A stretch of DNA of 48,342 nt, from positions 1 through 48,342 of the forward strand of contig DAIDHX010000238.1 in NCBI GenBank assembly GCA_027451885.1, given 5' to 3'. This stretch comes from Planctomycetales bacterium. GTDB lineage: Bacteria; Planctomycetota; Planctomycetia; Isosphaerales; Isosphaeraceae. The translations under genes and the position numbers were made by a program. Numbering within the stretch: the first letter of the stretch is position 1; the number at the start of each line of letters is the position of its first letter. Of this stretch, positions 198 to 47,606 are shown piece after piece. The notes below the pieces were generated by a model that saw only the letters and a program-made list of their open reading frames with translations, was not told the origin of the DNA and ran no database searches.

Positions 198-287
198 TTT
201 CAGATCCTCACGATGCTGGCTCGAATCACTCGGCCGCAGGATGATACCGTGAAAGGCGATGGGAGGGAAATTTCAACAGGCTGCTAG
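1..287 (-). mobile_element. Truncated end of an insertion sequence (IS1182-like)
   Basis: The window opens inside an insertion sequence. A transposase N-terminus reads leftwards from position 197, and the sequence at 266-287 reads on the minus strand as CTAGCAGCCTGTTGAAA, which looks like the terminal inverted repeat of IS1182/IS5-like DDE elements. The element ends almost exactly where the DUF3883 gene stops, so it appears to have landed at the 3' edge of the defence island. The other end lies outside the window, so the family, target duplication and completeness cannot be settled. The family name is from memory of similar planctomycete elements and is inference. Confidence 0.65.
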
Positions 288-1129
288 GAGAAGTAAAAAC
301 AAGCCCGCCACGACTCCGGGGCAAGAGTTACAGCTTTGTCTAAGGGCTGTGCCAACTTGAAAACACTGGGTCTCGTTGCGAACAGATGAACACGATAAAT
401 CTGCCACTCTAAGGGACGTTGCCTCGCGAAGTCTAATTCGTTGCGTGTGATGAAAAAGGGAGTGCGAGCCGATCCATTCGTAGTCTTTACCTCTATGAAG
501 CGCTCTTGTCCGTTCAAACTAAAAGATAGAACGTCATAACCAGCTCCATCGCCTTCTTCGGCGGCGATCCATCGGACCTTTTGAGCGAGATCGAGGCGGC
601 CGAGCTCAGTAAGCCATTGCCTCTCAATTTTCAAGACAAGCCTCTCGCCGGCTTTTCCGAGAGATCGATTACGATGGTCTCGTTCGACTGGATCATATTT
701 TTTGACGAGTCGGCGAAGACTCTCAGGAAGGGGCTTAGGCGGCGACTCAAGTGTTGGTGGATCAACAAACACATCGCGCAGGGAAGACCGCCGCCGGTCC
801 GGATATGCTGGCTTGGGTACGAGGATGTTAGGGTGCTTCTCGAGGTATCTGTCTATCGCGTCCAGGATAGCCTTCTGGTAGTTTTGCTTCGGCCTGTATC
901 CCAAGATCCAAGGCATCCCTAACTCGTCCAAAACCGCTGAGATATTTTGGTGCTTCAACTCGACCGAGGAGCCCGTCCGACCGATCTTTGCCATCAGCGT
1001 TTCACGATGCCTAGCTTTGACGTAAGGCGTACCGGAGATTTCATCAGAGAGCATGTCGAAATAGTCGGCCACGATAAGGTCGAGTTCCTCGCCCCTCCAA
1101 TCCGCCCCGTAATTTGTAGCATCAGCCAT
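284..1129 (-). CDS. DUF3883 (PD-(D/E)XK-like) protein, last gene of the defence island
   Basis: This 281-residue protein has a C-terminal half that fits the DUF3883 domain: GKAGE at 158-162, then G-x-D at 197-199, then FIEVKTT at 211-217. The D199...E213-x-K215 arrangement is the PD-(D/E)XK nuclease pattern, so a DNA-cleaving role is plausible but not shown. The N-terminal 100 residues are helical and unassigned. The start ATG at 1129 lies 27 bases after the glycosylase stop, so it is probably co-transcribed. The stop codon TAG (284-286) falls inside the terminal repeat of the adjoining IS, so the natural C-terminus may have been replaced by a few residues. The DUF3883 core looks complete. 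In restriction loci such domains often sit beside C5-cytosine methyltransferases, which matches the context. Confidence 0.8.
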   Translation of the reverse strand: MADATNYGADWRGEELDLIVADYFDMLSDEISGTPYVKARHRETLMAKIGRTGSSVELKHQNISAVLDELGMPWILGYRPKQNYQKAILDAIDRYLEKHPNILVPKPAYPDRRRSSLRDVFVDPPTLESPPKPLPESLRRLVKKYDPVERDHRNRSLGKAGERLVLKIERQWLTELGRLDLAQKVRWIAAEEGDGAGYDVLSFSLNGQERFIEVKTTNGSARTPFFITRNELDFARQRPLEWQIYRVHLFATRPSVFKLAQPLDKAVTLAPESWRACFYFS

Positions 1130-1156
1130 TGATCCTAGCCCGTCGCCATTCGCTGC

Positions 1157-1873
1157 TCATACCCGGACCTCACGAGATAACCGCACTCCAACTCGTTTGC
1201 ACATGTGACGGATGCAACAGTCGCCGCATCTCGGAGTACCCGGAAGGCAGATCACGCGCCCGTGTGATACTAGATTGACATGTAATGAAGACCTTACGTC
1301 GGGATCGATGCCGTCTTGAACTCGATCCATATCGCTGTTGGAGCACGACTTGTCGGGTCGAGTAGGTCGAACCCAGCCCAGACGGCGACAGATGCGCCAG
1401 CAGTTAGAGTCCACGGGGAACACCGGGCGCTGCAGCGAGTACATCATGACGCACCGCGCCGTCTTCCTACCAACGCCGGGGAGTGATTCGAGATACCTCT
1501 CGCACTCGGCGTCGCTCATGGTCCTCAGCGGGGAAAGTGTTGGAGCTCCGAAGTCGGATTGCAAGCGTGAGAAAACAGCCCGAATTGTGCGTGCTTTCTG
1601 CCGGGACAGTCCACCGCGAACGATCGCGGAAGCGATTTCGTCTTCGCTGGCCCCCCAAAGCTGGCGGAATGTGGGGAACCGCGACATCAAACTAGCATAG
1701 GTTGATTGATAGAGGGCCTCGTTTGTCTGCAAGCTGCAAATGATAAATATCAGCTCCCTCAGAGGGTTTGCCTTGTTGCCGTGTGACGGGTTGCCGTAGA
1801 CAGCTGACAAAGCGAGCGCAATTTGAGACACATCCTTAAAATGCAAAATGCGGCGTCGATCAGCGCTGGTCAT
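1157..1873 (-). CDS. HhH-GPD DNA glycosylase (endonuclease III family), next to a 5mC methyltransferase
   Basis: The 238-residue protein has the full endonuclease III layout: helix-hairpin-helix LPGVGRKTA at 131-139 with the catalytic lysine K137, the catalytic aspartate D155 in PVDSNCWRIC, and a C-terminal [4Fe-4S] loop with cysteines at 209, 216, 219 and 225 (spacing C-x6-C-x2-C-x5-C). The family removes damaged or mismatched pyrimidines. The ATG at 1873 overlaps the methyltransferase stop by four bases, pointing to translational coupling. This pairing recalls Mig.Mth of Methanothermobacter, an endonuclease III homologue encoded beside a GGCC methyltransferase that repairs T/G mismatches from deaminated 5-methylcytosine. 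A similar role here is inference. Mig has tyrosine where this protein keeps lysine, so lyase activity may be retained. Housekeeping Nth is the alternative, but the coupling argues against it. Confidence 0.85.
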   Translation of the reverse strand: MTSADRRRILHFKDVSQIALALSAVYGNPSHGNKANPLRELIFIICSLQTNEALYQSTYASLMSRFPTFRQLWGASEDEIASAIVRGGLSRQKARTIRAVFSRLQSDFGAPTLSPLRTMSDAECERYLESLPGVGRKTARCVMMYSLQRPVFPVDSNCWRICRRLGWVRPTRPDKSCSNSDMDRVQDGIDPDVRSSLHVNLVSHGRVICLPGTPRCGDCCIRHMCKRVGVRLSREVRV

Positions 1874-2982
1874 TTGGCGGCTCGCTCGAGGAACCCATGC
1901 ACGGCAGGTGCCAGATGAGAAGCCATCCTACAAGGGACTCCGTTACATATCATCTTGAACTTCGCAGAGAGTGATAGCTCTTCAGGCAATATATACTCAT
2001 CTGGTACAGATTGAATCCTGAGCGCTTCACGGACTGACAACCGTCTCGCCTTCCATGGGTGTAGGTGAACTTCCTGATTGCCGTACCACGCCGTCGGGCT
2101 AAAGCGGTAGCGGTGAAGTCTCTTGAATGATTTCCGGGCGACATCCCCTTCCCTAATCTCCCGGAACTTGCTCGAGTATGGCTTGAAGTATTCACACCCG
2201 TTGGCAATCCCCTCCGGGTCTCCTTCACCGATCAGGGCTGGGAAAACCGTCAGCTCGAGAGGGATCTCTTCGGGCTTCCTCGGTTCTTCGCCGAATGGTG
2301 TGACCTTTGGCCAAGGGAGGGACCTCGCGCCCTTAAAGCATTCGATCTCAGGCCAAGGGAACCATCTGCGTTCATCCAGCGCCAGACGCCGCCCCAGAGC
2401 ATTCTGGGCAAGTGACCGTTTGAAGCCGACAACAAAGAGCCTCTCACGGTCCTGGGGCACACCGAATTCAAGCGCATTCAGAATCATGAAGTCAAGGGCG
2501 TAGCCGTTCTCTTGCAATTGGCAAAGTTTGCTCTCTAGGAAATTCCGGTGCTTGCGGAAGCGGTAGAGGCCGGGAACGTTCTCGATAACGAAAAAAGAGG
2601 GCTTCAGGTTACAGAGCATATCTACAAAGACAGTCGTGAGCTTACCGTTCGTCCCATTTCCCCCGGCATGATTACCGCCATTACTAAAGTCCGGGCACGG
2701 TGGGCCACCGATCACGCCGAAGATATCAGGGCGAGGGCCGGCGAACGCCTCATTGAGGACATGCTTCGCTGAAAGTTCGCAAATGCTGCTTGTGTTAGTA
2801 ATCTTCGCCGTCAATTGCCACTTCTTGTTCGACGAGGATAGCCAGGCCGACATCCCATGCTCAAAACCAGCGATGAACGCCGGACAGTTCTCGTTGGTCC
2901 AGCAGATTGAGAAGCCAGCTTGCTTGAAACCGATATCGAGGAATCCTCCACCGGTAAAGAAGGAGAGTATCGGAAATGCCAT
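1870..2982 (-). CDS. drmMII: C5-cytosine DNA methyltransferase (DrmMII-like)
   Basis: The protein is 370 residues. Motif I (SFFTGGGFLDIGF, 7-19) binds S-adenosylmethionine, motif IV is GGPPCPDFS with catalytic C96, motif VI is IENV (133-136), and motif VIII is PQDRERLFVVG (176-186). The target-recognition region follows, then motif IX (RLSVREALRIQ) and a slightly unusual motif X (NGVP instead of GNAVP). All motifs needed for 5-methylcytosine formation are present. It starts directly after the drmB stop and overlaps the glycosylase gene. In class 2 DISARM the DrmMII methylase is a 5mC enzyme that marks host DNA, and the position next to drmA/drmB supports that name. The recognition sequence cannot be read from the sequence. 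Base composition is visibly AT-richer than drmA/drmB. Confidence 0.85.
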   Translation of the reverse strand: MAFPILSFFTGGGFLDIGFKQAGFSICWTNENCPAFIAGFEHGMSAWLSSSNKKWQLTAKITNTSSICELSAKHVLNEAFAGPRPDIFGVIGGPPCPDFSNGGNHAGGNGTNGKLTTVFVDMLCNLKPSFFVIENVPGLYRFRKHRNFLESKLCQLQENGYALDFMILNALEFGVPQDRERLFVVGFKRSLAQNALGRRLALDERRWFPWPEIECFKGARSLPWPKVTPFGEEPRKPEEIPLELTVFPALIGEGDPEGIANGCEYFKPYSSKFREIREGDVARKSFKRLHRYRFSPTAWYGNQEVHLHPWKARRLSVREALRIQSVPDEYILPEELSLSAKFKMICNGVPCRMASHLAPAVHGFLERAAK

Positions 2983-4875
2983 TTAGCCCTCCATGGCCCG
3001 ATTGAAGAATCCGATAGTGGGGTTGCCGAAGGGGCCAATAACAAGGCCCCTGTCGAGAAGCCGGTTGAACTCTTCGCACGTCGTCTCCGGCACGAGGCAG
3101 CAACCGTGACATGCGGCAAGATTCAGGGAATCCGGCCCCTGGCCACCGCTCTGGCCCATCTCCATGCAAACAGGATCAGCGGAACACCACTGCGCGCCCA
3201 AGAGCGCGCGGTCCAGGAGCGGCTCAAGACGCCCCGGCTTGCCCATGCGTACCAGGCCGCCCAGCGTACCCTCAGCATCGCCGGCAGCCGTGTAAATTAG
3301 GATACCCGCCATTGGAGCGGCCGGATTCTCCGAAACGTACAGCCGCTCCCTAAGCGCTGCCGAACTGTAGCCGCACTCATAGGTGAGGCGGTTGATGAGC
3401 AAATGCGCGAGCGTATGCAGTAAAATATATCGAGCACCGATCCGGCGATCGCGGAGATGCCGCGCTTGCCGGAGAGCTAGGTATCTTGCAACGAGAGGTG
3501 CCACGCGATTCTGGATATCCGGTAACGCTTCCCACTGGCGCAATCGCTGCTCGTCTAGGGTCAGGAGAATCCCTTCGCCGAACACCACGTAGGCTGGCAG
3601 CCACATCTCGTCTAGCGGGTTGAGCCGGAGCATGGCTTGCTGGCTGGCGAGATCGCGGTCCGTATCGGCAAAGACCCGCGTAAAACCAGCAAGTGCCCGT
3701 GTTTCGCGCAGTTTGTGGACGAGCGTGACACGCGAGAAGAAACGCGAGAAGTCCAGCGCGTACTGTCTGAGATTGGCGGGTCTCAGCACGAGCTGGGCGA
3801 AGTCAACGTCCGTGACAAGCGTGTCGTATTCTTGCCGCCTAAATCCCGTCTCGGCATCGTCACCTGCCGTCTTCTTCTTCTGCTTCTGCCGATCACCACC
3901 GCCGCACACTTCGGCGATGGCGTGCTCAAGCTGGCGGTCAGTGAATGTGCTGACGAGTTCCCGGTAAAGCTTCCGGAGCTGCGCCGGCGATGGGCTTCCG
4001 CCCGCACCCGCGACGATGGTCAGGAATGTGCTGAGCGGCGGCTGCTCCAGCAGAGAGATGGCCTCGTCGACCGTTGTGTCTTCACTGCGGGGGAGGTAAA
4101 TGGAGCTGTGGATTTGCGCGAAATAGACGTTCGCGGCGCTGCGGAGCGTGCCCCTAAGCGGCCTGCCGCACCCTAGGCCCTCCTCGGTACCGAGCCACGG
4201 GCGATGGCCGGGGCACAAGTACCGCGCCCTGCTGTCTAGTAGGCGGCTCAAGTCCGTGTCCTCGCCGTCAGGGCTAGCATTGGTGATACCGGCAAGCGTC
4301 CGCTCCGGGCCGCCATCTACCTTCACTTTCTGGCCCGCCAGCGTCATACCACCGGTCGAGACGAGTCGCATAGGGGGAGTGTTCTGCGGCGGATTTGCGG
4401 TCTCGTATACCCACTCCGCCCACGGGAAGTCCTGGATGTGCCCCGCATCGCACATGGCGACGAAGGGAACCTGGACAATGTACCTTGTCCACCCGCGCCC
4501 TTCACATTCAGCGCATTTGATTCGCCCCTTTGCCACCAGAGGGACTCTGCGCATCAACCCGCAGCGCGTGCAGTAATGCCACTGTGGGAACCTGAGAAAC
4601 GGCACCGTGAGATAACCGTTCGTCGTCGGGGCGAGGCGGCGCACCCGCCTGTGGTCAGGAGGGAGGTAGAAATGGGCGACGTTAAGGCGCGCAGAGAGTC
4701 GCCATTCATCGACCTGGTACTCCCGCTGGTCAATGTCTTCAGTGCCGCCGGATTCGTGCTTGAACCAGTGGTCAAGCCCGCCGCAGATGACGGAGACTCC
4801 GTCTGGTAGAATCATCATCGCGCCGGGCCCGAACGGCGAAATGAGTTGGCCGCGCCGAACTGGTCCTCTAGGCAT
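2983..4875 (-). CDS. drmB: DISARM protein DrmB (DUF1998 domain)
   Basis: I chose the ATG at 4875, which gives 630 residues beginning MPRGPVRRGQLISPFGPG. The frame is open upstream to 4980, but that stretch lies inside drmA. The chosen start overlaps the drmA stop by eight bases. N-terminal zinc-ribbon-like pairs are visible (CTRCG, then CAEC). The C-terminal DUF1998 domain begins near LLHTLAHLLI and carries the conserved cysteine cluster WCSADPVC ... ACHGCCLVPETTC before the closing NRLLDRG. In characterised DISARM, DrmB pairs with the DrmA helicase to form a DNA-binding complex that engages free 5' ends of foreign DNA. DUF1998 proteins also occur in other helicase-linked defence systems, but adjacency to DrmA and a 5mC methylase makes DISARM the best reading. 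Confidence 0.88.
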   Translation of the reverse strand: MPRGPVRRGQLISPFGPGAMMILPDGVSVICGGLDHWFKHESGGTEDIDQREYQVDEWRLSARLNVAHFYLPPDHRRVRRLAPTTNGYLTVPFLRFPQWHYCTRCGLMRRVPLVAKGRIKCAECEGRGWTRYIVQVPFVAMCDAGHIQDFPWAEWVYETANPPQNTPPMRLVSTGGMTLAGQKVKVDGGPERTLAGITNASPDGEDTDLSRLLDSRARYLCPGHRPWLGTEEGLGCGRPLRGTLRSAANVYFAQIHSSIYLPRSEDTTVDEAISLLEQPPLSTFLTIVAGAGGSPSPAQLRKLYRELVSTFTDRQLEHAIAEVCGGGDRQKQKKKTAGDDAETGFRRQEYDTLVTDVDFAQLVLRPANLRQYALDFSRFFSRVTLVHKLRETRALAGFTRVFADTDRDLASQQAMLRLNPLDEMWLPAYVVFGEGILLTLDEQRLRQWEALPDIQNRVAPLVARYLALRQARHLRDRRIGARYILLHTLAHLLINRLTYECGYSSAALRERLYVSENPAAPMAGILIYTAAGDAEGTLGGLVRMGKPGRLEPLLDRALLGAQWCSADPVCMEMGQSGGQGPDSLNLAACHGCCLVPETTCEEFNRLLDRGLVIGPFGNPTIGFFNRAMEG

Positions 4876-7800
4876 CGTCGGCCTCCTCTGCTTCGAGCAT
4901 GTAAAGCTGCGTGATTTCGACCTGGCACTCGGCGTCCACGTTGCGCAAGGACTGCGGCGTCGCCCATGAGACGCGGGCATTCGCCGGCGTCACGAACGCA
5001 CCTGCCGCCCTCATGAGGGGCATGTCTTCCGCATGGACGGCACCGTCCCATTTCAACCTTTGCCACCGTTGCCACTCCTCACCGCGCCGCTGGATAACCC
5101 GGTCAAGAGCCGCGAGTTCATCCGGGTCAACGGACGCTGCACGCTGTTTGAGAATGTTCGATACGGCGGTGACCAGGGAAGCCGGGAACGGATACGGGCT
5201 TTCGGACTGGTCGGAGTCGCCAAGTTGCCGAACATAACTTGCAATAACGGCGTGGGCTGCGCGGTCGAGCGCTGGCCGGGAGAACGGCGTCACGCTTGTC
5301 GGTTCCACCTGTGCATACAGCCGCTCGTGGTAGCTGCGGAATTTCTCGAAATGCGAGCGGTCGCGGGGTTTCGACGCGGTGTAGATCGTCACCACGAGCC
5401 CGGGCCGGTCGGATTTGCGGCCTACGCGCCCCGTCACTTGGATGTACTGAGAGGTAGTTTTCGGCTGGCCGACAACCGCCATCAGCGACAGGCGGTCAAT
5501 ATCGACGCCGACCTCGATGATGTTGGATGCCAGGCAAACATCTACGGGCTGCCCCTGCTGCGAGACCGTGGGGACCTCCAGCGCGGAAATGGCTTTCGGA
5601 ACCTCGTCGCCCGGCAAGCGGCCTGTCAGTTCGAGGATTTTCCTGAGTTGCCGGACATCCTGGAACCCAACCCCGAGGCGTTGCCTGAGCGCGCCCTTTA
5701 GCAAATCAGGGATGTCGGACTGGAACAGCGTAAGCGTTGTTCCAAGTTCGCGTAAGCTGTTGAAGAAGAGGAGTAGCGTCCACCACGGATCACGGTCGGC
5801 AGCCGCCATCGGCTGCGGCGCCTGAAGCAAGGCTGAAAAAGTACGGACCTGTACCGTCTGGAGCGACCCGAGGCCAGGGGCGTGAACACCAGCGTAGATT
5901 CGCCCGCGCTCAAGGGTGCCATCGGGCCGCCGCGCGACTCTCGCAAAGAAAGAATCGTCGGCGTCCAGTCCAGGAGGCGGGAACAGGCTGGTGCGCTCCC
6001 GCGCGTAGAGGCCATGCACCTGTTCGGCGTAGCTGCGAATCGTCGCCGTGGAACTCACGATCTTCGGTTTGGCTGCCTGCGGCACCCGCCTATCGGTACA
6101 CAGCTCTTCGATAATCGGTTCGTAGAGACCGACCATCGAGCCCAGCGGGCCGGAAATGAGGTGCAGTTCGTCTTGGATGATGAGGCCGGGCGGAGAGTAG
6201 CCCCTCGTCCCATCGTCGGCAATGCCAAACAGTGAGCGCGCTCGCGGCTTCCAGGCCAGCATCGCGAATTTGTCCACGGTGCCGATGATAAGGGCCGGGC
6301 GCTTCTCATAGATGTCGTCATCGATGACATAGAGCGGGAGCAACTCGTGGAACTCGCAGCGCCGATCGGGGCAGGTGTAAACGACGGTGTTATCCCGGTG
6401 CTCATAACCAATGACGCGGGGAACCCCGCCCCGGCGTCCTCGCCTGCGGCCAGTGGGGAGGTTCACCGGTCCCATTTCGGCCCCGCACCACGGACAACGA
6501 TCTAGAACGAACTTGTTCTGTTCTTTCCCATCGCCATTTTGAAGGCTTCGAAGTACAGAGCGGGCTTCTTCCTGCGTGTTTGGAGTTGTGGTACCCCCAA
6601 GCCAGATACCAGTGGAGATTTCGGCGTCACCCAATTCCCCGGCATTTTGCCGCCGGACATACTCCATCGCGCAAATCAGCCGGGAGGCACGCTGGAACTG
6701 CTGTGCGGTAAGCAGGCGGAGCGTGTACCTCATCAGAGTTTGTACGCCTGTGTCGGCGGGGTTCCGAAGCCTTCGAAGGAAGATGCTGAATGCCGCCAGC
6801 CCAAGATACGCCTCGGTCTTGCCACCACCAGTGGGAAACCAGATAAGTTCGACCCGTTCACGGTCGCCGTCACCTGCGTCTGCCGTTGACCGCAGGGATG
6901 CGAGGATAAATGCGACCTGGAAAGCTCTCCACTGGCTCCCCCGCGCGCGTTCCGAGTTAAGGTCGAGCGATTCGTAAGGCTCTTTGAACAAGAGGGTTGA
7001 AGTGTCGTAATCGAATGAAGCGGTGCGGGCCTCTCGCCTGGACCTCACCTGCTGCGTGACCATTGCGAGGTTCGCAAGTTGGAAGGCACGCCGGACTTGC
7101 GGGTCGCTTGCCAGCAGCGACAAGCCATCGCGCATTCGCCGGGCCGCCTCGGAGCATTCCGCCATATGGGCTTCGGCAGTTTCCCGCAATCGCGGGCTCA
7201 GTCCCGGGATACGGCCCCGCTGCACCGAAATCCACGCCTCGTACTCGCTGACAATGGCCTCAAGCTGCCCGGTTCCGGCGGAGGACGGGTCGATCCCGGA
7301 CAACAACCGCATGGAAGCAACCAGCGGTTGGCCAGTGCTTGAGCGGATGTCGGGCGTGGTACTTGGAGTCTCAAAGACCGGCAGGCATTCAGCCGAAACG
7401 CTTTCGGCGGAGGTCGCGGTGATGCGTGTCCAGTCAGCCGCGCACCCGTGGCCGACCGCGAACGTGAGTTTGTCGCGGTACAGCAGTTCCTGCGAGCGTT
7501 CTTCAATGCCCTGCGGCTCAGCCGTTGGGTAAGGCAGAATGACTCCGGGAGAACCGGGTTTCAACCGGACGTCGATCCCGGCCTGGAACAGCGACAGCAA
7601 ATCCAGGCGGCGGCCAGCAGGTTGGCGGTTGACCAGGCACACCGTTAGGAGGAATTCGTCCGGACGGGACTGGTAAGGTCTGGCGAAGACATCGATCCGC
7701 ACGTCGAGGTTTTCGACGTTCTCGCGCACCGGGTCGCGGGCATTGGCATAGGCGTTGGAAGGGGGAAAATCCGCGCGGTGGAAGTGGCTTTCTAGCCTGA

Positions 7801-8428
7801 CGGGTGAGCGAAGCCACCATTCACGCTCATAGAACTCAGGGGTAGCCGCTACTCCCTCTGCTCGCTCTTCCTGCCGCTCCCCACGGCTCCGAGGGCGAGG
7901 CAGAGCAACGGTTATCGGGCGATACCGACCTCCGGAGGCTGTGACCACCAGCGCGGCCCCTTCCGGCAGATGCACCAGCAGGCTAACTGCCATGCTGCTG
8001 GGTTTGTACGTATTGGCGGACGAAAGGTCGAAGTCGTCCGAATCGGCTTCCGGGAGGCGGTATTGGGCACGTGCAGCGATCTCCTCGCAGTCATGCACGG
8101 CCGAAGCCGTCAATGTCTCTCTGGCATTTTCCGGCGACTGGGGTGCCGCCTCTTCGTCGGGCGGAGGGAGTTGAGTATCAAGTTCGTCGGGCGGGACCGG
8201 AGCCTCCATCGGGTACAGGACGCCGACACCGTAGCGCTTCGTGGGCGTGTCCCGCTGGAGAATCTCCTCGCCGGAGCCGAGTTGGCGGTACGGCCTATAG
8301 GCGCCCTCGGCGTCCTCCAGGTGGATGGCCTGCGCGCAGTCGATTTCTTGCCCGGCTGGGCAGGGCCCGACGAGCTCCTCGCGGAGCGCCCGCAGCACAG
8401 CATCACGATTCGCAATATGGTCTGGCAC
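4868..8428 (-). CDS. drmA: DISARM helicase DrmA
   Basis: This is a 1186-residue superfamily 2 helicase starting with GTG at 8428, 21 bases after the previous gene. A long N-terminal region without a recognised motif (1-525) precedes Walker A FPTGGGKTE (531-539). A four-cysteine zinc site follows (CPWC at 645-648, and C686/C691), inserted between motifs I and II, then the box II variant DELH (753-756). The C-terminal RecA-like half contains IEVGVDID and the motif VI sequence QVTGRVGRKSDRPG. This size and zinc-containing insertion match DrmA, the core DISARM helicase, which with DrmB loads onto phage DNA. The gene overlaps drmB by eight bases. Function in defence is known for the family; activity here is inferred. 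Confidence 0.9.
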   Translation of the reverse strand: MPDHIANRDAVLRALREELVGPCPAGQEIDCAQAIHLEDAEGAYRPYRQLGSGEEILQRDTPTKRYGVGVLYPMEAPVPPDELDTQLPPPDEEAAPQSPENARETLTASAVHDCEEIAARAQYRLPEADSDDFDLSSANTYKPSSMAVSLLVHLPEGAALVVTASGGRYRPITVALPRPRSRGERQEERAEGVAATPEFYEREWWLRSPVRLESHFHRADFPPSNAYANARDPVRENVENLDVRIDVFARPYQSRPDEFLLTVCLVNRQPAGRRLDLLSLFQAGIDVRLKPGSPGVILPYPTAEPQGIEERSQELLYRDKLTFAVGHGCAADWTRITATSAESVSAECLPVFETPSTTPDIRSSTGQPLVASMRLLSGIDPSSAGTGQLEAIVSEYEAWISVQRGRIPGLSPRLRETAEAHMAECSEAARRMRDGLSLLASDPQVRRAFQLANLAMVTQQVRSRREARTASFDYDTSTLLFKEPYESLDLNSERARGSQWRAFQVAFILASLRSTADAGDGDRERVELIWFPTGGGKTEAYLGLAAFSIFLRRLRNPADTGVQTLMRYTLRLLTAQQFQRASRLICAMEYVRRQNAGELGDAEISTGIWLGGTTTPNTQEEARSVLRSLQNGDGKEQNKFVLDRCPWCGAEMGPVNLPTGRRRGRRGGVPRVIGYEHRDNTVVYTCPDRRCEFHELLPLYVIDDDIYEKRPALIIGTVDKFAMLAWKPRARSLFGIADDGTRGYSPPGLIIQDELHLISGPLGSMVGLYEPIIEELCTDRRVPQAAKPKIVSSTATIRSYAEQVHGLYARERTSLFPPPGLDADDSFFARVARRPDGTLERGRIYAGVHAPGLGSLQTVQVRTFSALLQAPQPMAAADRDPWWTLLLFFNSLRELGTTLTLFQSDIPDLLKGALRQRLGVGFQDVRQLRKILELTGRLPGDEVPKAISALEVPTVSQQGQPVDVCLASNIIEVGVDIDRLSLMAVVGQPKTTSQYIQVTGRVGRKSDRPGLVVTIYTASKPRDRSHFEKFRSYHERLYAQVEPTSVTPFSRPALDRAAHAVIASYVRQLGDSDQSESPYPFPASLVTAVSNILKQRAASVDPDELAALDRVIQRRGEEWQRWQRLKWDGAVHAEDMPLMRAAGAFVTPANARVSWATPQSLRNVDAECQVEITQLYMLEAEEADDA

Positions 8429-8449
8429 TGGCTGCCCCCCGTTTCATTG

Positions 8450-10180
8450 TTACCTGCTGCCAAGCAGTGATTGGATGATGCCGGGCTTGGCCGTCTCATG
8501 CACGATGATACAGAGCCGCTCCAACGCCCGCGTTGTCGCAACGTAGAAGAGCGACGAGAACATGTCACTATCGACATGCTCGATGTCGGTGACGACGACG
8601 GCTGGGGAGTCAAGGCCCTTGAAGTTTTGGATAGTAGTATAGCGAATCTGGCCGGTTGAAGCAGCCGCGAACGGTACGAGTTGGTCGGACCACGGCTTCT
8701 CAGAAACACTGGCCGCTGCGCATCGCGTCCCGGCCTTCGGCGAAAGGACAACGATGTCATCACCGCTGTAGGATTCTTTGAAAAGGCGTTCGAGTATCTT
8801 GGCGAGTTCCTTGCGCTGCTGGGATGGCGTGGCGTAGTAGCTGATAACCGGCTCGATGTGGTCATCGGGCCGAAGGATGCGCGAGTAGTTAGGTGTGAGG
8901 CGACCGAGCAGGTGCGACAGCGTCGCAACCCGGGGTGTGTTCCGGCAATTCACGCGGAGTGACCCCCTGGCAAACGTACCTAACCGCTTGCGGATCAATT
9001 CGTCGACCTGGTCGCGGTCTTGCCCATAGAGTATCTGCCGCTCGAAGTCGCCAAACATGCGCCACGAACCGCCTGTAAGCCCTCCCTTGAGGACCAGTTC
9101 GAGCACGTCGAGATAGGGAGCGTGGAGCAGGTCCTGCACTTCGTCGGCTATCACGAGGTCGAACTGCCAAGAGTCCAGTTGTCCCCCCAGCAAGCTGGAC
9201 ATGGCGGCATCAGGCAACTCGGCTTTCCAGAACGAATCATCCGCGCCTTCTGGCACCTTGATGCCCGCAATCCCAGCCATGTACTGGTGGAATGTTCCAG
9301 CCGTGATCTGGCCGCTACGCGCGAGCGGGTGATCGGACAGCCACCGCCCAAGCAGGCGGTTGAAGCACACGAGCAGAACACTTTTCCCTGCACTTGCGGC
9401 TCTCCGGGCCGATTCCAATGCGAGGATCGTCTTGCCTGTCCCTGCCGGCCCTGTGAAAAGTACGCGGGGGTTATCCTCCATCGTGTCGATCGCTGCAAAT
9501 TGTTCCTCCGTATATCGCAGGATTTCCGCTTGCTGCCGCGCGCGCCGGTCCGGGGCCTTTTCGCTGAATTCAAAACTTGGCCTGAGAATCCGCGCGATGG
9601 CGGCGGCCTGCTGCTGATTCGGGAATCGGTCCGCTTCGTTGAACCACCTGGTGGTTGGCTGCGCGATCAGGAAGGACCGCGCCCTTCTGAGAACATCAGC
9701 GATTAGAGACGCAAGTGACTGGCGGTGGAACCTCGGTGAGTCAATCACCTGCCACGGATGCCACTCGTCGGAAGCGGCTTTGAACTCAATAAATGGGAAA
9801 GCAACGGCCGACCAGAAAAGGACGCGCGATAGCGCTGGCTCGGCCTGCACGACCTGCTGGCGCAGGCTGTGCATCGCCTCCGAAGCCTGCTTGAACGGGC
9901 CCCTTGGATCGCCATGCGGGTCGTGGCCGTAGTACCACAGGCCGTCTCTTCGCTGAAGGGAGTGGCAAGCCTTCACCTCCAGACAGAGTATGCCGAGTGT
10001 CGGTGCGATAATCACAAAATCCGCTTCGCCGGCGACTTGCCGCAGGTGGTGCGCGATGTCGAGCGAATGAAGTACTATCCAGTCCTTGGTTCCTGGCTCA
10101 TCTCTCAGCCGGGTGAATATCTCGCGCTCTCCGGGGCTGGGACAAGACGCAGGGATGACCGGAGGGATCATGCGGGCCAC
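8450..10180 (-). CDS. NERD nuclease-like domain fused to SF1 (UvrD/Rep-like) helicase
   Basis: The 576-residue protein starts with GTG at 10180, two bases after the previous stop; an ATG at 10171 is a possible alternative. Residues about 15-110 form a NERD domain, with GERE at 17-20, EADFVII containing D54, and LEVK with E68 and K70, the PD-(D/E)XK-type core. From about 225 there is an SF1 helicase: Walker A GPAGTGKT (244-251), box II DEVQD (346-350), and C-terminal motifs FKGLDSPAVVV and YVATTRA. The helicase part is short, as in other NERD-UvrD fusions. It sits between the DrmE-like genes and drmA in a gap-free operon, so it is probably part of the system. Canonical DISARM has DrmC, a PLD nuclease, which is missing here; this protein may supply nuclease activity instead (inference). 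Confidence 0.85.
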   Translation of the reverse strand: MARMIPPVIPASCPSPGEREIFTRLRDEPGTKDWIVLHSLDIAHHLRQVAGEADFVIIAPTLGILCLEVKACHSLQRRDGLWYYGHDPHGDPRGPFKQASEAMHSLRQQVVQAEPALSRVLFWSAVAFPFIEFKAASDEWHPWQVIDSPRFHRQSLASLIADVLRRARSFLIAQPTTRWFNEADRFPNQQQAAAIARILRPSFEFSEKAPDRRARQQAEILRYTEEQFAAIDTMEDNPRVLFTGPAGTGKTILALESARRAASAGKSVLLVCFNRLLGRWLSDHPLARSGQITAGTFHQYMAGIAGIKVPEGADDSFWKAELPDAAMSSLLGGQLDSWQFDLVIADEVQDLLHAPYLDVLELVLKGGLTGGSWRMFGDFERQILYGQDRDQVDELIRKRLGTFARGSLRVNCRNTPRVATLSHLLGRLTPNYSRILRPDDHIEPVISYYATPSQQRKELAKILERLFKESYSGDDIVVLSPKAGTRCAAASVSEKPWSDQLVPFAAASTGQIRYTTIQNFKGLDSPAVVVTDIEHVDSDMFSSLFYVATTRALERLCIIVHETAKPGIIQSLLGSR

Positions 10181-10182
10181 GA

Positions 10183-11763
10183 TTATTCCTCCCCGTCCAG
10201 CAGCACACCGACCCGATCGGCCGGGATTTCGAATTCCTCCGCCTGGATGGCGGTGATCTGGAAGGCTGAAAGCGTACCGCCATCGTGGTCGCCAAGGTCG
10301 AAAACCATTTCCCCATCGCGCTCCAGCGGCTCCAGGGATGTCTCAGAAATCTTCTGCAAGAGCATTCGCCGGATAAGCTGGCCCGCGCGCTTGTGTGCGC
10401 GGCTAATCTCGCCCATCGCCGCCCACAGCTCCCGCGCCCTCGTTTCCATTCCCGCGAAGGCCAGGGTCGCCGCGAAGTCCTCCTCTTTGCGCGGGCGGAT
10501 GCACTTTGATGACATCCAGTAATGGACGTTCTCAGGCCGGGCTTGCGAGAGTCCACTGGCTTGCAGGCTAGAACAGATCTGGGAGGCAAGCTCGCGGCGG
10601 CTAACAGCGCCAAACTGTTGGATTGCCTTGGAAACCAGGCGGTCTTTCCACTCGGCCTGTTCAGATCGGCGCTGTACGGCCGTCACTCCGAGAATGCGGT
10701 CTGCCAGCGGCGCGATGAAATCGCCTCCACCGGATGTGCGCAGCAGCAGATACTGGCCTGGCTCCAGTTCATCAGCGTGTGCCCGCGTGAGGGCGAATCG
10801 GCCTGTTTCGGATGTGTCTATTATTAAAGAAGTAGTGCCGTCGTCGGCAGCGACGAAAACAGCACGGTTGCCGCTAAGATGGCATAGGCGTGCAGGAGCG
10901 GTTTCCGCGCTGCTCTCGGGGTCAGAGTCCGAGCCAGAGTACTTGTTACGCGAATACGCCGTCGCAGGCGGCACCAGGTCTTGTGGTGTGACGTCGGCAG
11001 AAGAGAGATCATTCCGCGGTGACTCCCCTCCGATCTTCGGAATTGCTCCGATGCGATGGTTGCAGTGCTTGCCACCTGGTGCATCTGAGCCGTGCAAGAG
11101 GATTGGCCCAGGTTTCCAGGGGTCGCGAATCCATCGGAATGAAATGACATGAATGGCAGGGGCTCTAGGGGCGGAGAAAACATACTCCGGGTGCCAGCCG
11201 CAGGGGCCTATCACCGCGAGCACGTCACACGCATGTGCGCCGCGCAGCTGTGTGGCACTGACGACCCTTGCGTTACGAAGAGCCGCATTCTTTGTGAGGA
11301 AATCAGCGACAGCCTGATTCATCCGGGGATTGCGCATGATTACACAGAGACCGGCAACTTGCCGATGCAGTTCTTCAAGCGGAGCGATAAGAGGCGAACT
11401 GGTATCCGCGCTGAGTTGCTCCAGTTTATGGGCAAGGCTCGCGAGCGCCTCGTGGGCATCCGGGAACAATTGCTGGCAGAGGCGAACCTGGCGGCCGACT
11501 TTATTCCAGTCAATGCCGACTAACGCAGTGGCGTGGGCGAAAGGCAGCGGTGTTGAGCAGAAAGTAAAAGCGAGCCTGCGCAAGGTCCCAAGGGTATTCC
11601 GCCAATAGTCGTCTTCGGCCTCTTCCCCCAATGACTGGACCAGCGCCCGCAGTGAGCGAGAGACATCGGCAAGTGCCGTGTGTTCGACTAAATGGCGTTG
11701 AATCTCACAGCGAGAAGCATCGCCGTAGACTGCCGTGGCGCTTCCGATTGATAAAGGGATCAC
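10183..11763 (-). CDS. DrmE-like protein, C-terminal part (526 aa)
   Basis: The gene starts with GTG at 11763, sharing a GTGA overlap with the stop of the 343-residue gene upstream. It ends two bases before the NERD-helicase gene. No catalytic motif stands out. The middle contains a stretch resembling the second RecA-like half of a helicase (VVSATQLRGAHACDVLAVIG, then APRAPAIHVISFRWIRD). The last 200 residues are helical, with the pattern EWKDRL ... YWMSSKCIRPRKEEDF ... AHKRAG and then an acidic end. In class 2 DISARM the extra subunit DrmE is about 800 residues, close to the sum of this protein and its neighbour (869). I therefore read the two as a split DrmE. This is inference from size, order and partial resemblance. 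Confidence 0.55.
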   Translation of the reverse strand: MIPLSIGSATAVYGDASRCEIQRHLVEHTALADVSRSLRALVQSLGEEAEDDYWRNTLGTLRRLAFTFCSTPLPFAHATALVGIDWNKVGRQVRLCQQLFPDAHEALASLAHKLEQLSADTSSPLIAPLEELHRQVAGLCVIMRNPRMNQAVADFLTKNAALRNARVVSATQLRGAHACDVLAVIGPCGWHPEYVFSAPRAPAIHVISFRWIRDPWKPGPILLHGSDAPGGKHCNHRIGAIPKIGGESPRNDLSSADVTPQDLVPPATAYSRNKYSGSDSDPESSAETAPARLCHLSGNRAVFVAADDGTTSLIIDTSETGRFALTRAHADELEPGQYLLLRTSGGGDFIAPLADRILGVTAVQRRSEQAEWKDRLVSKAIQQFGAVSRRELASQICSSLQASGLSQARPENVHYWMSSKCIRPRKEEDFAATLAFAGMETRARELWAAMGEISRAHKRAGQLIRRMLLQKISETSLEPLERDGEMVFDLGDHDGGTLSAFQITAIQAEEFEIPADRVGVLLDGEE

Positions 11764-12791
11764 GCGAGCGCCTCCCGGAAAGCAAGGACTTCGCCTCCAG
11801 CCGGAGCGTCGTCCGCCGGTAAAGCGACGTCGCCTTCTACGCGGTTCTGAGAGAATCTCGTGTTTATAGCGCTGATTGCATCATCGAAATAGGGTTCGGT
11901 GCGGTCGAGGACGATAACTTGGTGTCGGCCGCGCCACAACTGCCCCCATTTTAGAAAACCCAGCGCGCCGTCGAATACAACTCCCATCTCTGTGCTTGCG
12001 AGCACATCATCGGCGGGAGAGCCAGACCTCACTGGCACAAGCGCACAGCGGTGGGACTGCTGCCCAGTGACGAATTGGTTAACCCGCAGAACGTCCTGGA
12101 GATGGCCTTCTGCACGCCTTTGACCGTTGGCGTGGAGTGCAAGGGGTGTCTGCTTGATCTCGTGCTTTAGCACGTTTTGCTTTCCAACAAGAGCGCAAAC
12201 CAGCTTTGATCGCAATCCGAGTTGCACCGGGTCAGCTTCCCCCAGCAGACCGTCAACAAATGCGTTAGCAAACCGGGCGTTCTCTGCTCCCTGCTTCTTT
12301 GGCAGCTTGCCGGAGTGGCGAGCGGGTTGCACTTGCAGCGCCCGTAATTCATCGATGAGGTAGGTCAATCCCCCTCCGCCCCTGGATTGGACCTGGACTC
12401 GCACATGCAGTTTTCCGCGGTATTCTTCTGGAGATTGCAGGACGCCTCTCAGCGTCTTTCCCGGTGCCGGGCGGTAAATGACAGGGGTACCAGGGGGAAG
12501 GTCAAAAAGCTTCTCGAAGTGGGCAGACTCGGAGGAATGATTCCGCGCAGCCGCGTCGCTTATGATCATGCCCAGGCTGACAAACGCAGCGCCGAAAGCG
12601 CGGGTGGGCAGGACCATTGCGGTAACGATTCTGCTTCCGGTTTGCTCCTCGCACGCCACTTGCTTCCCGATGCTGATGAAATACTCGGCCCACTCCGGTA
12701 AACTATACCAATCTCCCGAATCTTCAAAATGCAAGTTCACAGGTGAAAAATCACTCACTGGATCGCATCTCACCTTTACGTGTAATCGCAT
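11760..12791 (-). CDS. DrmE-like protein, N-terminal part (343 aa), first gene of the island
   Basis: This is the promoter-proximal gene of the minus-strand operon, with ATG at 12791 and no strong Shine-Dalgarno sequence. The protein is soluble, with no signal peptide or membrane segment. A middle stretch (PPGTPVIYRPAPGKTLRGVL, then LHVRVQVQ) looks like a small beta domain. The end contains GVVFDGALGFLKWGQLW followed by HQVIVLDRTEPYFDDA, which resembles a Walker-B-like strand followed by an acidic patch, with no clear Walker A. The stop overlaps the start of the next gene (GTGA). Together the two have the size expected of DrmE. Alternatively they are two unrelated unknown subunits. Function unknown. 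Confidence 0.5.
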   Translation of the reverse strand: MRLHVKVRCDPVSDFSPVNLHFEDSGDWYSLPEWAEYFISIGKQVACEEQTGSRIVTAMVLPTRAFGAAFVSLGMIISDAAARNHSSESAHFEKLFDLPPGTPVIYRPAPGKTLRGVLQSPEEYRGKLHVRVQVQSRGGGGLTYLIDELRALQVQPARHSGKLPKKQGAENARFANAFVDGLLGEADPVQLGLRSKLVCALVGKQNVLKHEIKQTPLALHANGQRRAEGHLQDVLRVNQFVTGQQSHRCALVPVRSGSPADDVLASTEMGVVFDGALGFLKWGQLWRGRHQVIVLDRTEPYFDDAISAINTRFSQNRVEGDVALPADDAPAGGEVLAFREALA

Positions 12792-14340
12792 CCCGCGAAC
12801 TTGTTTAGTTTTCCACTCGCGCCGGGCTGTTGACTCTGAGTGCTAACCACTCGCCGCAAGATTGTGTGATAATATTTTCGCGCCAGCACGAGCGTCGAGG
12901 ACCGCCCCCCCGCACTTCATGAAAGCAGGGGGTAGTCCTCGATAGGCAACCTGATCTTTAGCAGTTACTTGAAGCGAGCCCCTCCAGTTTTCGACCAAGA
13001 GTTGTGATGACCGCGATCGGTACCAGAGCTCCCAAGTTCCGCAGGAGCGTGCATCAATGGTCAAAGATTAAAAAATTTGTCTAGCAAGCGACGGTAGACT
13101 TGTCAAGTGGGATACAAATCTCTGAGAGCGTCCGAAGCCGAGGTCCTCCTGAGGGATAAGAATCCGGGGATTCTCGAGGGCATCCTCAAGGACAGAGCCC
13201 AGCGCGAACCTCGGTGGATCACGCTTACGAGCCTACTAAATGATTCCCTCGCCCCGACTATCGCAGTCGCGGCTCCAACGCACTCTCTCCCTCAACCCCC
13301 TCACGATCCGAATAAATTAACCCGGCCGAAGTCAGCGCCGCAAAAGCTTTTGTTCGAACTCGCCAGATAGGCCGCATGTTAGTGATGAGGGAGCCCGGGC
13401 CGGCTGCGCAAGCCTCCGCGCTCCGCTCCCACTCAAAACACCCTCGACCTCAAACGCGGGATCGTCCAGGTCCACATCGACACCACTCCCGCGATCGCCC
13501 GAACCACACCGAGCACCCGATCAACGCGGGTCGAGATCACCCACACGCAAACGCAACCCTGACGAATTCAACAAAGTTGCCGCCTGTATCGATTGTGAGT
13601 GTTCCCCGGACCACCGCCCGCAACAGCGGCAGCGAATCTCCACGCGCTCCAACCGAACCCAATGGCCCCGAAAAAGCGAAGCCAACACTCGAGATCGAAC
13701 CGACACCCGAGATCGAACCGAACCCAACGGCCCCGAAAAAGCGAAGCCAACACTCGAGATCGAACCGAACCCAACGGCCTCGAAAAAGCGAAGCCAACAC
13801 CCGAGATCGAACCGAACCCAATCGCCCCAAAAAACGACGCCAACCCGCCCCGTAACTCAAAGCCAATAAACGGGATCGGGCCGAAGCCAACGGCCCCGAA
13901 AAAGCGAAGCCAACACTCGAGATCGAACCGAACCCAACGGCCTCGAAAAACCGAACCCAACGGCCCCGAAAACGCGAAGCCGACGACTCCGCGAAACCGA
14001 ACTCAGCTCGTCGCGCACCGAACCCAGTCAGGGGTTGGAAGGAGAACAGATGAACGACCGGGAGTACTGCATCAGGAGGGACGTGTGGTGGACTGGAGTT
14101 CAGGATTCATTTCCTGGGCGATCCGGTCCACCCTGCCATGGTCCGAGGGGATCCGTCGCTGGGTCCGAGCGTGTGAATCACTCCCTCCGCTCGGCGCAGG
14201 GGATCGTTCATTCGTCGATCGCGAGGGTGTGCTCGCTCGAGCGGGTCGTGTGGGGCTCGCGTTCGGGCTGGGGGCATTCCCATCGCGCGACCGCGCTGGA
14301 AAGACGCCCGGATCCTCGTCCGCAGGTCCGGCCGCGGGGG
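12792..14340. other. Non-coding stretch between defence island and ssrA
   Basis: I see no convincing gene in these 1.5 kb. Short open frames exist on both strands, but they are rich in Arg/Pro/Ser, lack ribosome binding sites and do not resemble known families. The first 300 bases should hold the promoter of the island. On the minus strand AAAATATTATCACAC at about 12865-12879 offers an AT-rich, -10-like TATTAT, without a good -35 partner. A degenerate 47-bp tandem repeat occupies 13654 to about 14000. The rest (14000-14340) shows nothing I can name. Confidence 0.6.
13654..14000. repeat. Degenerate 47-bp tandem repeat
   Basis: A unit beginning CGAACCCAACGGCCCCGAAA and ending CTCGAGATCGAAC recurs at 13654-13700, 13719-13765, 13766-13812 and 13882-13928, each exactly 47 bases. 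A diverged copy lies at 13813-13881, and truncated copies begin at 13929 and 13952. An 18-base partial copy sits at 13701-13718. Copies differ by a few substitutions. The unit is not a multiple of three, so every long frame across it is an artefact. There are no unique spacers between copies, so this is not a CRISPR array. Role unknown. Confidence 0.9.
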
Positions 14341-14374: not shown

Positions 14375-14394
14375 CGGCTCGAGCCTGTTCAGAG

Positions 14395-14758
14395 TGGAGG
14401 CGGCGGGAATTGCACCCGCGTCCCGAGAAGCATCGACGACGGCCTCTACGTGCGTAGCCGATCCTTTGATTGTCGGCCGCGAGGCCCCGACCGGCAGGGT
14501 CCTCTTTGGCTTAGCCGGTCATGAGTTTAACCCAGGCCGCAACCAGCGGTTAGGCCCAGGCGATCCCGCATTGGCGTCCCCGGCCGTGTCTCGCGGGAGA
14601 AGACGCGGCGCGAGGCCGTAGCTGTTTTTTAGGCAGCGAGACGGAGACCAACATTGCTGTTGGCACGTAAAGTTTGGTCGGCTTTTAACGAGGCCCGCTG
14701 ACCAACCTCGGCACGCCACACGTCGCTTCAGACATCCGGTCGATCCTGGTTCGCCCCC
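14395..14758 (-). ncRNA. ssrA: Transfer-messenger RNA (tmRNA)
   Basis: The minus strand begins GGGGGCGAACCAGGATCGAC, the usual tmRNA 5' end, and finishes with a T-arm (GGACGCGGGTGCAATTCCCG) and CGCCTCC, which pairs with the first seven bases to rebuild the tRNA-like acceptor. The terminal CCA is not encoded (the next bases are CTC), so it must be added. The tag frame resumes at GCC (14664-14662) and encodes ANSNVGLRLAA with a TAA stop at 14629-14631. Upstream, GGTTGGTC ... GCCGACC can form pseudoknot 1. tmRNA with SmpB rescues stalled ribosomes and tags the product for proteolysis; smpB is at 32549-33031 in this window. The gene is followed by a good terminator. Confidence 0.95.
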
Positions 14759-46940: not shown

Positions 46941-47606
46941 ATGCGTAGCTTGCTTGTGAGTTTCGCAATCGGCGTGTTTCCCGTGACATGGTATGCCGAT
47001 CCGCAGTGCTGCGGAGGTGGCGATGGGTCGAAGTCCGGATGCCACTGCTGTGCGATGTGTGGGAGGGAATCGAGAACGATCGTGAAGCCATCGGAGGGCA
47101 AGAAGCCCTCGGAGAGCAAGAAGCCCTCGGAGAGTAAAAAGCCCTCGGAGGTTGCAAGTCCCAAGGGTCGGCCGCAGGGAAGCAACCGGCCTGCCGTGGC
47201 CAGGCTGCCAGGTGACGACCGCAACGCGATCCACGCGTTGCTCAGCCAACACGGCTCCATCAAGAGAGTTGTGGAGGAGATCCCAGGCGGAGTTCGGACG
47301 ACCACGACAACGGATCGGCCGGAACTGGTGGAGACGCTCCGGCTCCACGTGCGCCAGATGGCCCGGCGGCTTGAAGAAGGGCGCCCCGTGCGCCTTTGGG
47401 ATCCCGTCTTTCGCGAGGTTTTCGCCAGCGCTGATGAGATCACCTTGAAGTGGAAAGACATCGAAAGCGGGATCGAGGTAATCGAGACCAGCGACGATCC
47501 GGATGTGGTGCTGGTGATCCGCGCTCACGCGAAAAAGGTCAACGAATTCGTCGACCGCGGTCACGCCGCCGCGCGCCCGCCCTGGGCCGGCAGGCGCGGA
47601 CATTAA
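46941..47606 (+). CDS. Secreted Cys-rich protein with KKPSES repeats and unknown C-terminal domain
   Basis: The 221-residue product starts with a short hydrophobic signal (MRSLLVSFAIGVFPVTW). A Cys-rich stretch (QCCGGGDGSKSGCHCCAMCG) follows, which could bind metal. Residues about 48-72 repeat KKPSES/KKPSEV, encoded by near-identical 15-base units (about 47082-47152). The C-terminal domain (about 110-205) has the pattern VRQMARRLEEGRPVRLWDPV followed by FREVFASADEI and TSDDPDVVLVIRAHAKKVNE; I have seen this type of domain in small secreted bacterial proteins but cannot name a function. GGGAGC ahead of the ATG supports the start. Confidence 0.7.
   Translation: MRSLLVSFAIGVFPVTWYADPQCCGGGDGSKSGCHCCAMCGRESRTIVKPSEGKKPSESKKPSESKKPSEVASPKGRPQGSNRPAVARLPGDDRNAIHALLSQHGSIKRVVEEIPGGVRTTTTTDRPELVETLRLHVRQMARRLEEGRPVRLWDPVFREVFASADEITLKWKDIESGIEVIETSDDPDVVLVIRAHAKKVNEFVDRGHAAARPPWAGRRGH
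47082..47152 (+). repeat. Short 15-bp in-frame tandem repeat
   Basis: Four near-identical 15-base units of the form AAGCCCTCGGAGAGCAAG occur in frame inside the secreted Cys-rich protein and encode (K)KPSES-type pentapeptides. Differences are single bases (AGC/AGT, AAG/AAA), suggesting recent expansion by slippage. Confidence 0.85.

What the first reader, a model, noticed from the sequence alone, without database searches (positions are those of the whole stretch)
284..12791. DISARM-like defence island with an altered subunit set
Seen: eight genes on one strand with overlaps or gaps of at most 27 bases, in the order DrmE-like (two genes), NERD-SF1 helicase, DrmA, DrmB, 5mC methylase, HhH glycosylase, DUF3883. 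Known: class 2 DISARM consists of DrmE, DrmA, DrmB, DrmC (PLD nuclease) and DrmMII (5mC). Here no PLD protein is present, while two nuclease-like proteins (NERD and DUF3883) and a DNA repair glycosylase are built into the operon. Inference: a DISARM subtype where the effector has been exchanged and a repair function added.
Basis: partly seen in the sequence, partly recalled or inferred. Interest (0 to 1): 0.8.

Follow-up and report, generated by a model that had tools for sequence, protein, structure and literature searches.

The report
DISARM variant with NERD nuclease-helicase
This is an anti-virus gene cluster of the known DISARM kind, but from a branch that carries a predicted nuclease-helicase (NERD) where the textbook nuclease DrmC is missing, together with a DNA-marking enzyme and a glycosylase that probably repairs the mutations this marking causes; the arrangement recurs in many bacterial phyla and I found no description of it.

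Summary
In detail: eight tightly packed genes on the minus strand at 284-12791, with DrmA and DrmB confirmed by profiles and no DrmC among the eight. The two 'DrmE-like' genes are one DrmE split in two (E1 aligns to residues 18-322 and E2 to 357-880 of fused DrmE relatives). The models suggest a helicase-like fold whose ATP motifs are lost in E1.

The NERD-SF1 helicase is not a local oddity. Among 100 DrmA loci compared, 53 carry it directly upstream of drmA, 31 of them with DrmE; none of the 53 has a DrmC hit. DrmC hits appear only in 16 planctomycete loci on another branch of the DrmA tree. NERD and helicase catalytic residues are conserved.

The HhH glycosylase most likely repairs deaminated 5-methylcytosine. 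In relatives its place beside the 5mC methylase is usually taken by Vsr, which repairs T:G, and in three loci an HhH domain is fused to the methylase. DUF3883 is a sporadic addition.

Verdict: a class-2-type DISARM variant. 'Effector exchanged' is plausible but unproven: the same genome has a second DISARM with DrmC, and DrmC is reported dispensable. 'Repair added' is well supported by context but untested. The contig ends 283 bases past the last gene.

The parts
11760..12791 (-). drmE N-terminal half (E1, 343 aa): predicted RecA1-like domain with an inserted Tudor-like barrel; motif I and II degenerate
   Evidence: hhalign to residues 18-322 of fused DrmE, E 1.5e-6; AlphaFold pLDDT 83.5; VIA Z 8.2 best row, UvrD Tudor domain Z 7.2 at 91-167; no GK(T/S) at motif I and DG instead of DE at motif II
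10183..11763 (-). drmE C-terminal half (E2, 526 aa): predicted RecA2-like domain plus DrmE_C
   Evidence: hhalign to residues 357-880 of fused DrmE, E 2e-35; PF24957 24.7 bits, relatives 34-50 bits; AlphaFold pLDDT 84.5; VIA Z 10.2 to Hef helicase, the other listed rows being mostly SF2/Snf2-type helicases
8450..10180 (-). NERD nuclease - SF1 (UvrD-like) helicase (576 aa); nuclease D54, E68, K70; Walker A K250
   Evidence: PF08378, PF13538; D/E/K conserved 40/41, 40/41, 39/41 and Walker Lys 50/50 in drmA-linked homologues
4868..8428 (-). drmA, YprA-type SF2 helicase (1186 aa), Walker A at 533, DELH at 753
   Evidence: NF038325 877.6 bits, PADLOC DrmA 3e-209; motif positions
2983..4875 (-). drmB (DUF1998/MZB); start by homology at residue 36 of the longest frame
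   Evidence: NF038324 407 bits, PF09369; start compared with L058
1870..2982 (-). 5-methylcytosine DNA methyltransferase (DrmMII-like role)
   Evidence: PF00145; PADLOC DruM2 1.7e-130, DrmMII 4.7e-29; 72% identical in L053/L054
1157..1873 (-). HhH-GPD DNA glycosylase, endonuclease III type: K137, D155, C209-X6-C216-X2-C219-X5-C225
   Evidence: PF00730, TIGR01083; motif positions; association with 5mC MTases
284..1129 (-). DUF3883/NOV_C PD-(D/E)XK-like nuclease (PADLOC PDC-S36), D199 and EVK at 213; sporadic accessory
   Evidence: PF13020 73.6 bits, PDLC05008 8e-106; motif

Best explanation
A class-2-type DISARM variant. DrmA and DrmB form the DNA-loading helicase that recognises incoming unmarked DNA. 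A split, probably ATP-dead DrmE acts as scaffold or sensor. The NERD-SF1 protein supplies a second motor and the DNA-cutting activity that PLD nuclease DrmC supplies elsewhere. The 5mC methylase marks host DNA as self. The HhH glycosylase removes the T (or U) left at T:G (U:G) mismatches when 5mC (C) deaminates, the job done by Vsr in related operons. DUF3883 is an added accessory nuclease. Shown here: gene content, conservation of gene order and catalytic residues, lack of DrmC in the operon and in NERD-linked loci, recurrent 5mC MTase with Vsr or HhH. Inferred: all biochemical roles, DrmE as a pseudo-helicase (models and motif loss only), NERD as the effector.
For: DrmA/DrmB profile matches. 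Order E1-E2-NERD-DrmA-DrmB repeated in other loci of several phyla (13 with E1-E2-NERD-DrmA), and fused DrmE-NERD-DrmA-DrmB in more; a Rhodococcus plasmid shows hypothetical-hypothetical-NERD-helicase-DUF1998 with Vsr, NaeI-type and HNH nucleases and a 5mC MTase nearby. NERD directly upstream of drmA in 53 of 100 loci, DrmC profile hits in 16 others, none shared. Catalytic residues of NERD and of the SF1 motor conserved. Of 67 NERD- or DrmE-bearing loci, 48 have a 5mC MTase within 8 kb; 20 of these have Vsr only, 7 HhH only, 1 both. HhH domain on the C-terminus of the MTase in L113, L120, L124. The nearest HhH relatives outside DISARM, L159 (57%) and L160 (41%), also lie in loci with 5mC MTases.
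Against: No experiment. DrmC is dispensable and often missing from DISARM (PMC9142583), so its absence need not be compensated. The same genome has a DISARM with DrmC (L036) that could act in trans. NERD helicases also occur outside DISARM (15 of 294 planctomycetes have one; only three of these are known to sit beside DrmA). Bacillota members of the DrmE branch have neither NERD nor a DrmC hit. DrmE fold matches are modest (Foldseek: no E under 0.001). MTase versus Vsr/HhH co-occurrence within the branch is not significant by itself (Fisher p 0.14). The loci are not a random sample.
Confidence: 0.6

Rival explanations
1. Two neighbouring systems: a DISARM core (DrmE, NERD helicase, DrmA, DrmB) and a type II restriction-modification cassette (5mC methylase, T:G repair glycosylase as in Mig/Vsr-containing R-M systems, DUF3883 as restriction nuclease) that happen to share a transcription unit.
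For: Relatives have recognisable type II R-M partners beside the core: EcoRII nuclease and MTase in L035, HNH and MTase in L034, NaeI/HNH/Vsr/MTase on the Rhodococcus plasmid. G+C of the last three genes is 52-56% against 57-62.5% for the other five. PADLOC puts the HhH protein with type II nicking endonucleases.
Against: MTase and HhH are co-inherited with the core in L053 and L054 at 63-72% identity without DUF3883; no intergenic gaps; DrmMII is itself a standard DISARM part.
Confidence: 0.25
2. The HhH glycosylase is itself an anti-phage effector: it excises a modified or mismatched pyrimidine in foreign DNA (base-excision restriction) rather than repairing host DNA.
For: Keeps the bifunctional endonuclease III residues K137 and D155 and the Fe-S cysteines, so it is expected to cut the backbone; base-excision restriction enzymes exist as a kind (PMC10273834). 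Other HhH partners in this branch have Tyr at the Lys position, so the window type may have another substrate.
Against: Its niche is filled by Vsr, a repair nickase, in most relatives that have a partner. Known base-excision restriction enzymes have another fold (HALF PIPE).
Confidence: 0.08
3. The NERD helicase and DUF3883 nuclease are independent defence genes that collected next to DISARM as in any defence island.
For: DUF3883 (PDC-S36) and NERD helicases occur elsewhere without DISARM.
Against: NERD keeps one fixed position, directly upstream of drmA, in 53 of 100 loci across phyla. For DUF3883 the statement may be right.
Confidence: 0.07

Closest known systems
DISARM class 2 (DrmE, DrmA, DrmB, DrmC, DrmMII; Ofir et al. 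2018, from memory; general DISARM make-up as in PMC9142583)
   Same: DrmA, DrmB, DrmE (split) and a 5mC methylase in one operon
   Different: No DrmC; NERD-SF1 helicase between drmE and drmA; T:G-repair-type glycosylase; DUF3883; DrmE too diverged for PADLOC's DrmE models
DISARM with DrmC of the same genome and other planctomycetes (L036-L052)
   Same: DrmA and DrmB homologues
   Different: Those have DrmC; the loci flagged DrmC have no NERD upstream of drmA, and no 5mC MTase, Vsr or HhH hit within 8 kb
TALON (Bell et al. 2025, PMC12458937)
   Same: A YprA-family helicase together with a NERD nuclease
   Different: TALON has an ARMADA-like one-piece YprA protein, TPR-CSD and TBP genes; here DISARM-type split DrmA/DrmB and none of the TOTE genes in the operon
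Type II R-M systems with a mismatch-repair partner (Vsr; Mig.Mth, from memory)
   Same: 5mC methylase with a T:G repair enzyme and a nuclease
   Different: Embedded in a DISARM operon; the window's glycosylase has the endonuclease III lysine, not the tyrosine of Mig-type enzymes

Membership tests
DISARM | DrmA helicase (YprA type) | tested here: met
   NF038325 877.6 bits (below its 950 cut-off), PADLOC DrmA 3e-209
DISARM | DrmB (DUF1998) as a separate adjacent gene | tested here: met
   NF038324 407 bits, cut-off 240
DISARM | DNA methyltransferase (DrmMI or DrmMII) in the operon | tested here: met
   PF00145 155.7 bits; DrmMII model 4.7e-29, though a DruM2 model scores higher
DISARM | DrmC (PLD nuclease); typical, but reported dispensable and often missing, so not treated as defining here | tested here: not met
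   No DrmC/PLD match in the eight proteins; contig ends 283 bases downstream. PMC9142583 states that DrmC is non-essential and often missing
DISARM class 2 | DrmE | tested here: met
   E1 and E2 align to the two halves of fused DrmE; PF24957 just below cut-off in the window, above it in several split and fused relatives; PADLOC DrmE models do not reach it
DISARM | Protects against phage | not testable with these tools
   needs experiment
TALON | One-piece ARMADA-like YprA with C-terminal RNase H-like domain, TPR-CSD and TBP genes, NERD nuclease | tested here: not met
   DrmA and DrmB are separate genes of the DISARM families; no TPR, CSD or TBP match among the eight proteins; features from PMC12458937
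Type II R-M (M + R + repair) | Methylase and nuclease of the same recognition site | not testable with these tools
   needs methylome and nuclease assay
Mig-type T:G glycosylase | Tyr in place of the endonuclease III catalytic Lys (from memory) | tested here: not met
   Window has K137; L056, L058, L061, L074, L102 have Tyr
Endonuclease III-type glycosylase | HhH-GPD with Lys/Asp pair 18 residues apart and C-X6-C-X2-C-X5-C cluster | tested here: met
   K137, D155, C209/C216/C219/C225

The most novel reading that the evidence does not exclude
A major, undescribed branch of DISARM in which a NERD-SF1 nuclease-helicase has replaced DrmC as the DNA-degrading effector, DrmE is a pseudo-helicase, and 5mC self-marking is kept safe by a dedicated deamination-repair enzyme (Vsr or an HhH glycosylase), which would make such repair a regular part of 5mC-based DISARM.
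Probability: 0.4. Interest if true: 0.65.

Novelty: new variant of a known kind. Interest (0 to 1): 0.52.

Why it matters
How DISARM destroys DNA is open: DrmC is dispensable and often missing. A conserved NERD-helicase directly upstream of drmA across phyla names a testable candidate effector. The regular pairing of the 5mC methylase with Vsr or an HhH glycosylase points to a mutational cost of 5mC self-marking that the systems pay to repair. PADLOC's DrmE models do not reach the split DrmE here, and none of its DISARM models was the match for the NERD subunit, so such loci are likely to be annotated incompletely.

Tried and rejected
- HhH as a base-excision restriction enzyme of the R.PabI/R.CcoLI kind: those have another fold (HALF PIPE); kept only as a weak rival.
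- An island at the tmRNA gene (14392-14758): the 26-base tmRNA 3' end has no second copy in the genome within 3 mismatches, and I saw no integrase between tmRNA and contig end. Not supported, not excluded.
- First genome-contig scan with the single DrmA sequence found nothing; the alignment scan worked.
- Foldseek alone for E1/E2: no match with E under 0.001; VIA-align gave the helicase reading.
- DUF3883 family in planctomycetes as a fixed partner of 5mC MTases: its neighbours there are an SF1 helicase, a Schlafen/AlbA-type protein or proteins without matches; rejected.
- No paper found describing NERD or Vsr as DISARM parts; the library is open-access papers only and lacks Ofir et al. 2018 and the source of PDC-S36.
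Full report
What is there. Eight genes on the minus strand, 12791 down to 284, spaced -8 to +27 bases (with DrmB's start set by homology at about 4875). Profiles confirm DrmA, DrmB, a NERD nuclease fused to a UvrD-like SF1 helicase, a 5mC methyltransferase, an endonuclease III-type HhH glycosylase and a DUF3883/NOV_C protein, which PADLOC knows as defence candidate PDC-S36. No DrmC or PLD match appears in any of the eight. The window is a complete contig of a 6.18 Mb, 316-contig genome, and the operon runs towards the contig end, which lies 283 bases past the last gene.

DrmE is split. Profile comparison aligns E1 to residues 18-322 (E 1.5e-6) and E2 to 357-880 (E 2e-35) of fused 820-930 aa DrmE homologues. 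Pfam DrmE_C is just below cut-off in the window and above it in several split and fused relatives. AlphaFold models (pLDDT 83.5 and 84.5) place E1 near RecA1 domains with a Tudor-like insert (VIA Z 8.2 and 7.2) and E2 near RecA2 domains of SF2 helicases such as Hef, MDA5, XPF and XPB (best Z 10.2). At the motif I position E1 has PTRAFGAAF-like residues without GK(T/S), and DG at motif II. I infer a pseudo-helicase cut between its two RecA halves; fold matches of this strength are suggestive, not proof.

The NERD-helicase belongs to a DISARM branch. A scan of 84,980 species genomes with a four-sequence DrmA alignment gave the 80 best loci with flanks; 20 more come from planctomycetes. The order E1-E2-NERD-DrmA is present in 13 other loci, 12 of them with DrmB still on the contig, from Desulfobacterota, Nitrospirae, Acidobacteriota, Rhodothermia, Myxococcota, Chloroflexota, Burkholderiales and others. 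Further loci have fused DrmE-NERD-DrmA-DrmB. In a tree of 100 DrmA proteins NERD lies directly upstream of drmA in 53, 31 of them with DrmE. DrmC profile hits occur in 16 planctomycete loci, on another branch; no locus has both. A Pfam and PADLOC scan of 57 other operon genes from these loci shows no PLD or DrmC among the listed families (only 25 of 52 and 25 of 174 families are listed). NERD D54/E68/K70 are kept in 40, 40 and 39 of 41 aligned homologues and the Walker lysine in 50 of 50. The plasmid pROB02 of Rhodococcus opacus B4 carries hypothetical-hypothetical-NERD-helicase-DUF1998 with Vsr, NaeI-type and HNH nucleases and a 5mC methyltransferase close by. The Bacillota members of the split-DrmE branch (L063, L066, L068, L069, L083, L094) have neither NERD nor a DrmC hit, so NERD is common but not universal.

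The glycosylase and the 5mC mark. The closest relatives L053 and L054 (Desulfobacterota/Deltaproteobacteria MAGs) share E1/E2 (71/63%, L053), NERD (70-72%), DrmA (75-77%), DrmB (79%), methylase (72%) and HhH (63-66%), but not DUF3883. In other members the commonest small accessory gene is Vsr, the nickase that starts T:G repair at deaminated 5mC (11 of 57 scanned genes). Of 67 loci with NERD or DrmE, 48 have a 5mC methyltransferase within 8 kb; among these 20 have Vsr only, 7 an HhH protein only, 1 both; none of the 15 loci flagged DrmC has a 5mC methyltransferase, Vsr or HhH hit. HhH domains are fused to the methyltransferase C-terminus in L113, L120 and L124. Outside DISARM, the two best HhH relatives in planctomycetes, L159 and L160, sit in loci with 5mC methyltransferases. 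HhH and Vsr thus look like interchangeable repair partners of the mark. Caveat: within the branch the association with the methyltransferase is not significant alone (Fisher p 0.14). The window's enzyme keeps K137/D155 and the Fe-S cysteines, while five partners in other loci have Tyr at the Lys position as in Mig-type enzymes, so the substrate could differ.

DUF3883. A related NOV_C protein follows DrmB directly in L058 (53 bits), and weak hits lie in L063 and L071. The window's own family occurs in 5 other genomes of 294 in the phylum sample, in loci without DrmA. I treat it as a sporadic accessory nuclease; the slot is filled by EcoRII-, HNH- or other restriction-type nucleases elsewhere.

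Mechanism. DrmAB recognises unmarked DNA with ends or overhangs and is less active on 5mC DNA (PMC9142583). I propose that the NERD-SF1 protein is the recruited nuclease and second motor, DrmE a scaffold, the methylase the self mark, and HhH the upkeep of the mark. Shown: composition, order, conservation. Inferred: every activity.

Against the replacement claim. DrmC is dispensable in tested systems and often missing. The same genome has a second, DrmC-bearing DISARM (C175, L036), so a DrmC could act in trans. A NERD helicase (E up to 1e-25) is found in 15 of 294 planctomycetes, and only three of these are known to lie beside DrmA.

Novelty. Bell et al. 2025 describe NERD with YprA in TALON and a PLD nuclease as typical for DISARM; in the text I read, and in three literature searches, NERD or Vsr as DISARM components was not described. 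The literature held is open-access only, so prior description cannot be excluded. I rate it a new variant of a known kind.

Noticed in passing
14392-14758 (-): tmRNA gene (Rfam RF00023, 144 bits; tag ANSNVGLRLAA) 1.6 kb from the operon's upstream end, its 3' end facing the operon; no second copy of its 3' end in the genome.
   Followed up: partly
13651-14001: Tandem repeat array (units of about 23, 47 and 116 bases) between tmRNA and the operon; it keeps long open frames on both strands that are probably not genes.
   Followed up: no
47084-47150: Short 18-base tandem repeat (3.7 copies).
   Followed up: no
L036 (G000:C175), DrmC at 6545-7495 of the locus: The same genome carries a second DISARM of the DrmC-bearing kind on another contig.
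   Followed up: partly
L159:8081-15532 (planctomycete G126): Operon-like locus: two 5mC MTases, an unknown 634 aa protein, a DUF2357-PDDEXK_7 nuclease and an HhH glycosylase 57% identical to the window's, without DrmA.
   Followed up: partly
[quoted passage not shown]
   Followed up: partly
L034/L085 (Ca. Brocadia pituitae), DrmA 8781-10946 of L034: DrmA lacks its N-terminal third and drmE/NERD are gone, with a DrmMII and an HNH nuclease directly upstream: perhaps a replaced front half of the operon.
   Followed up: no
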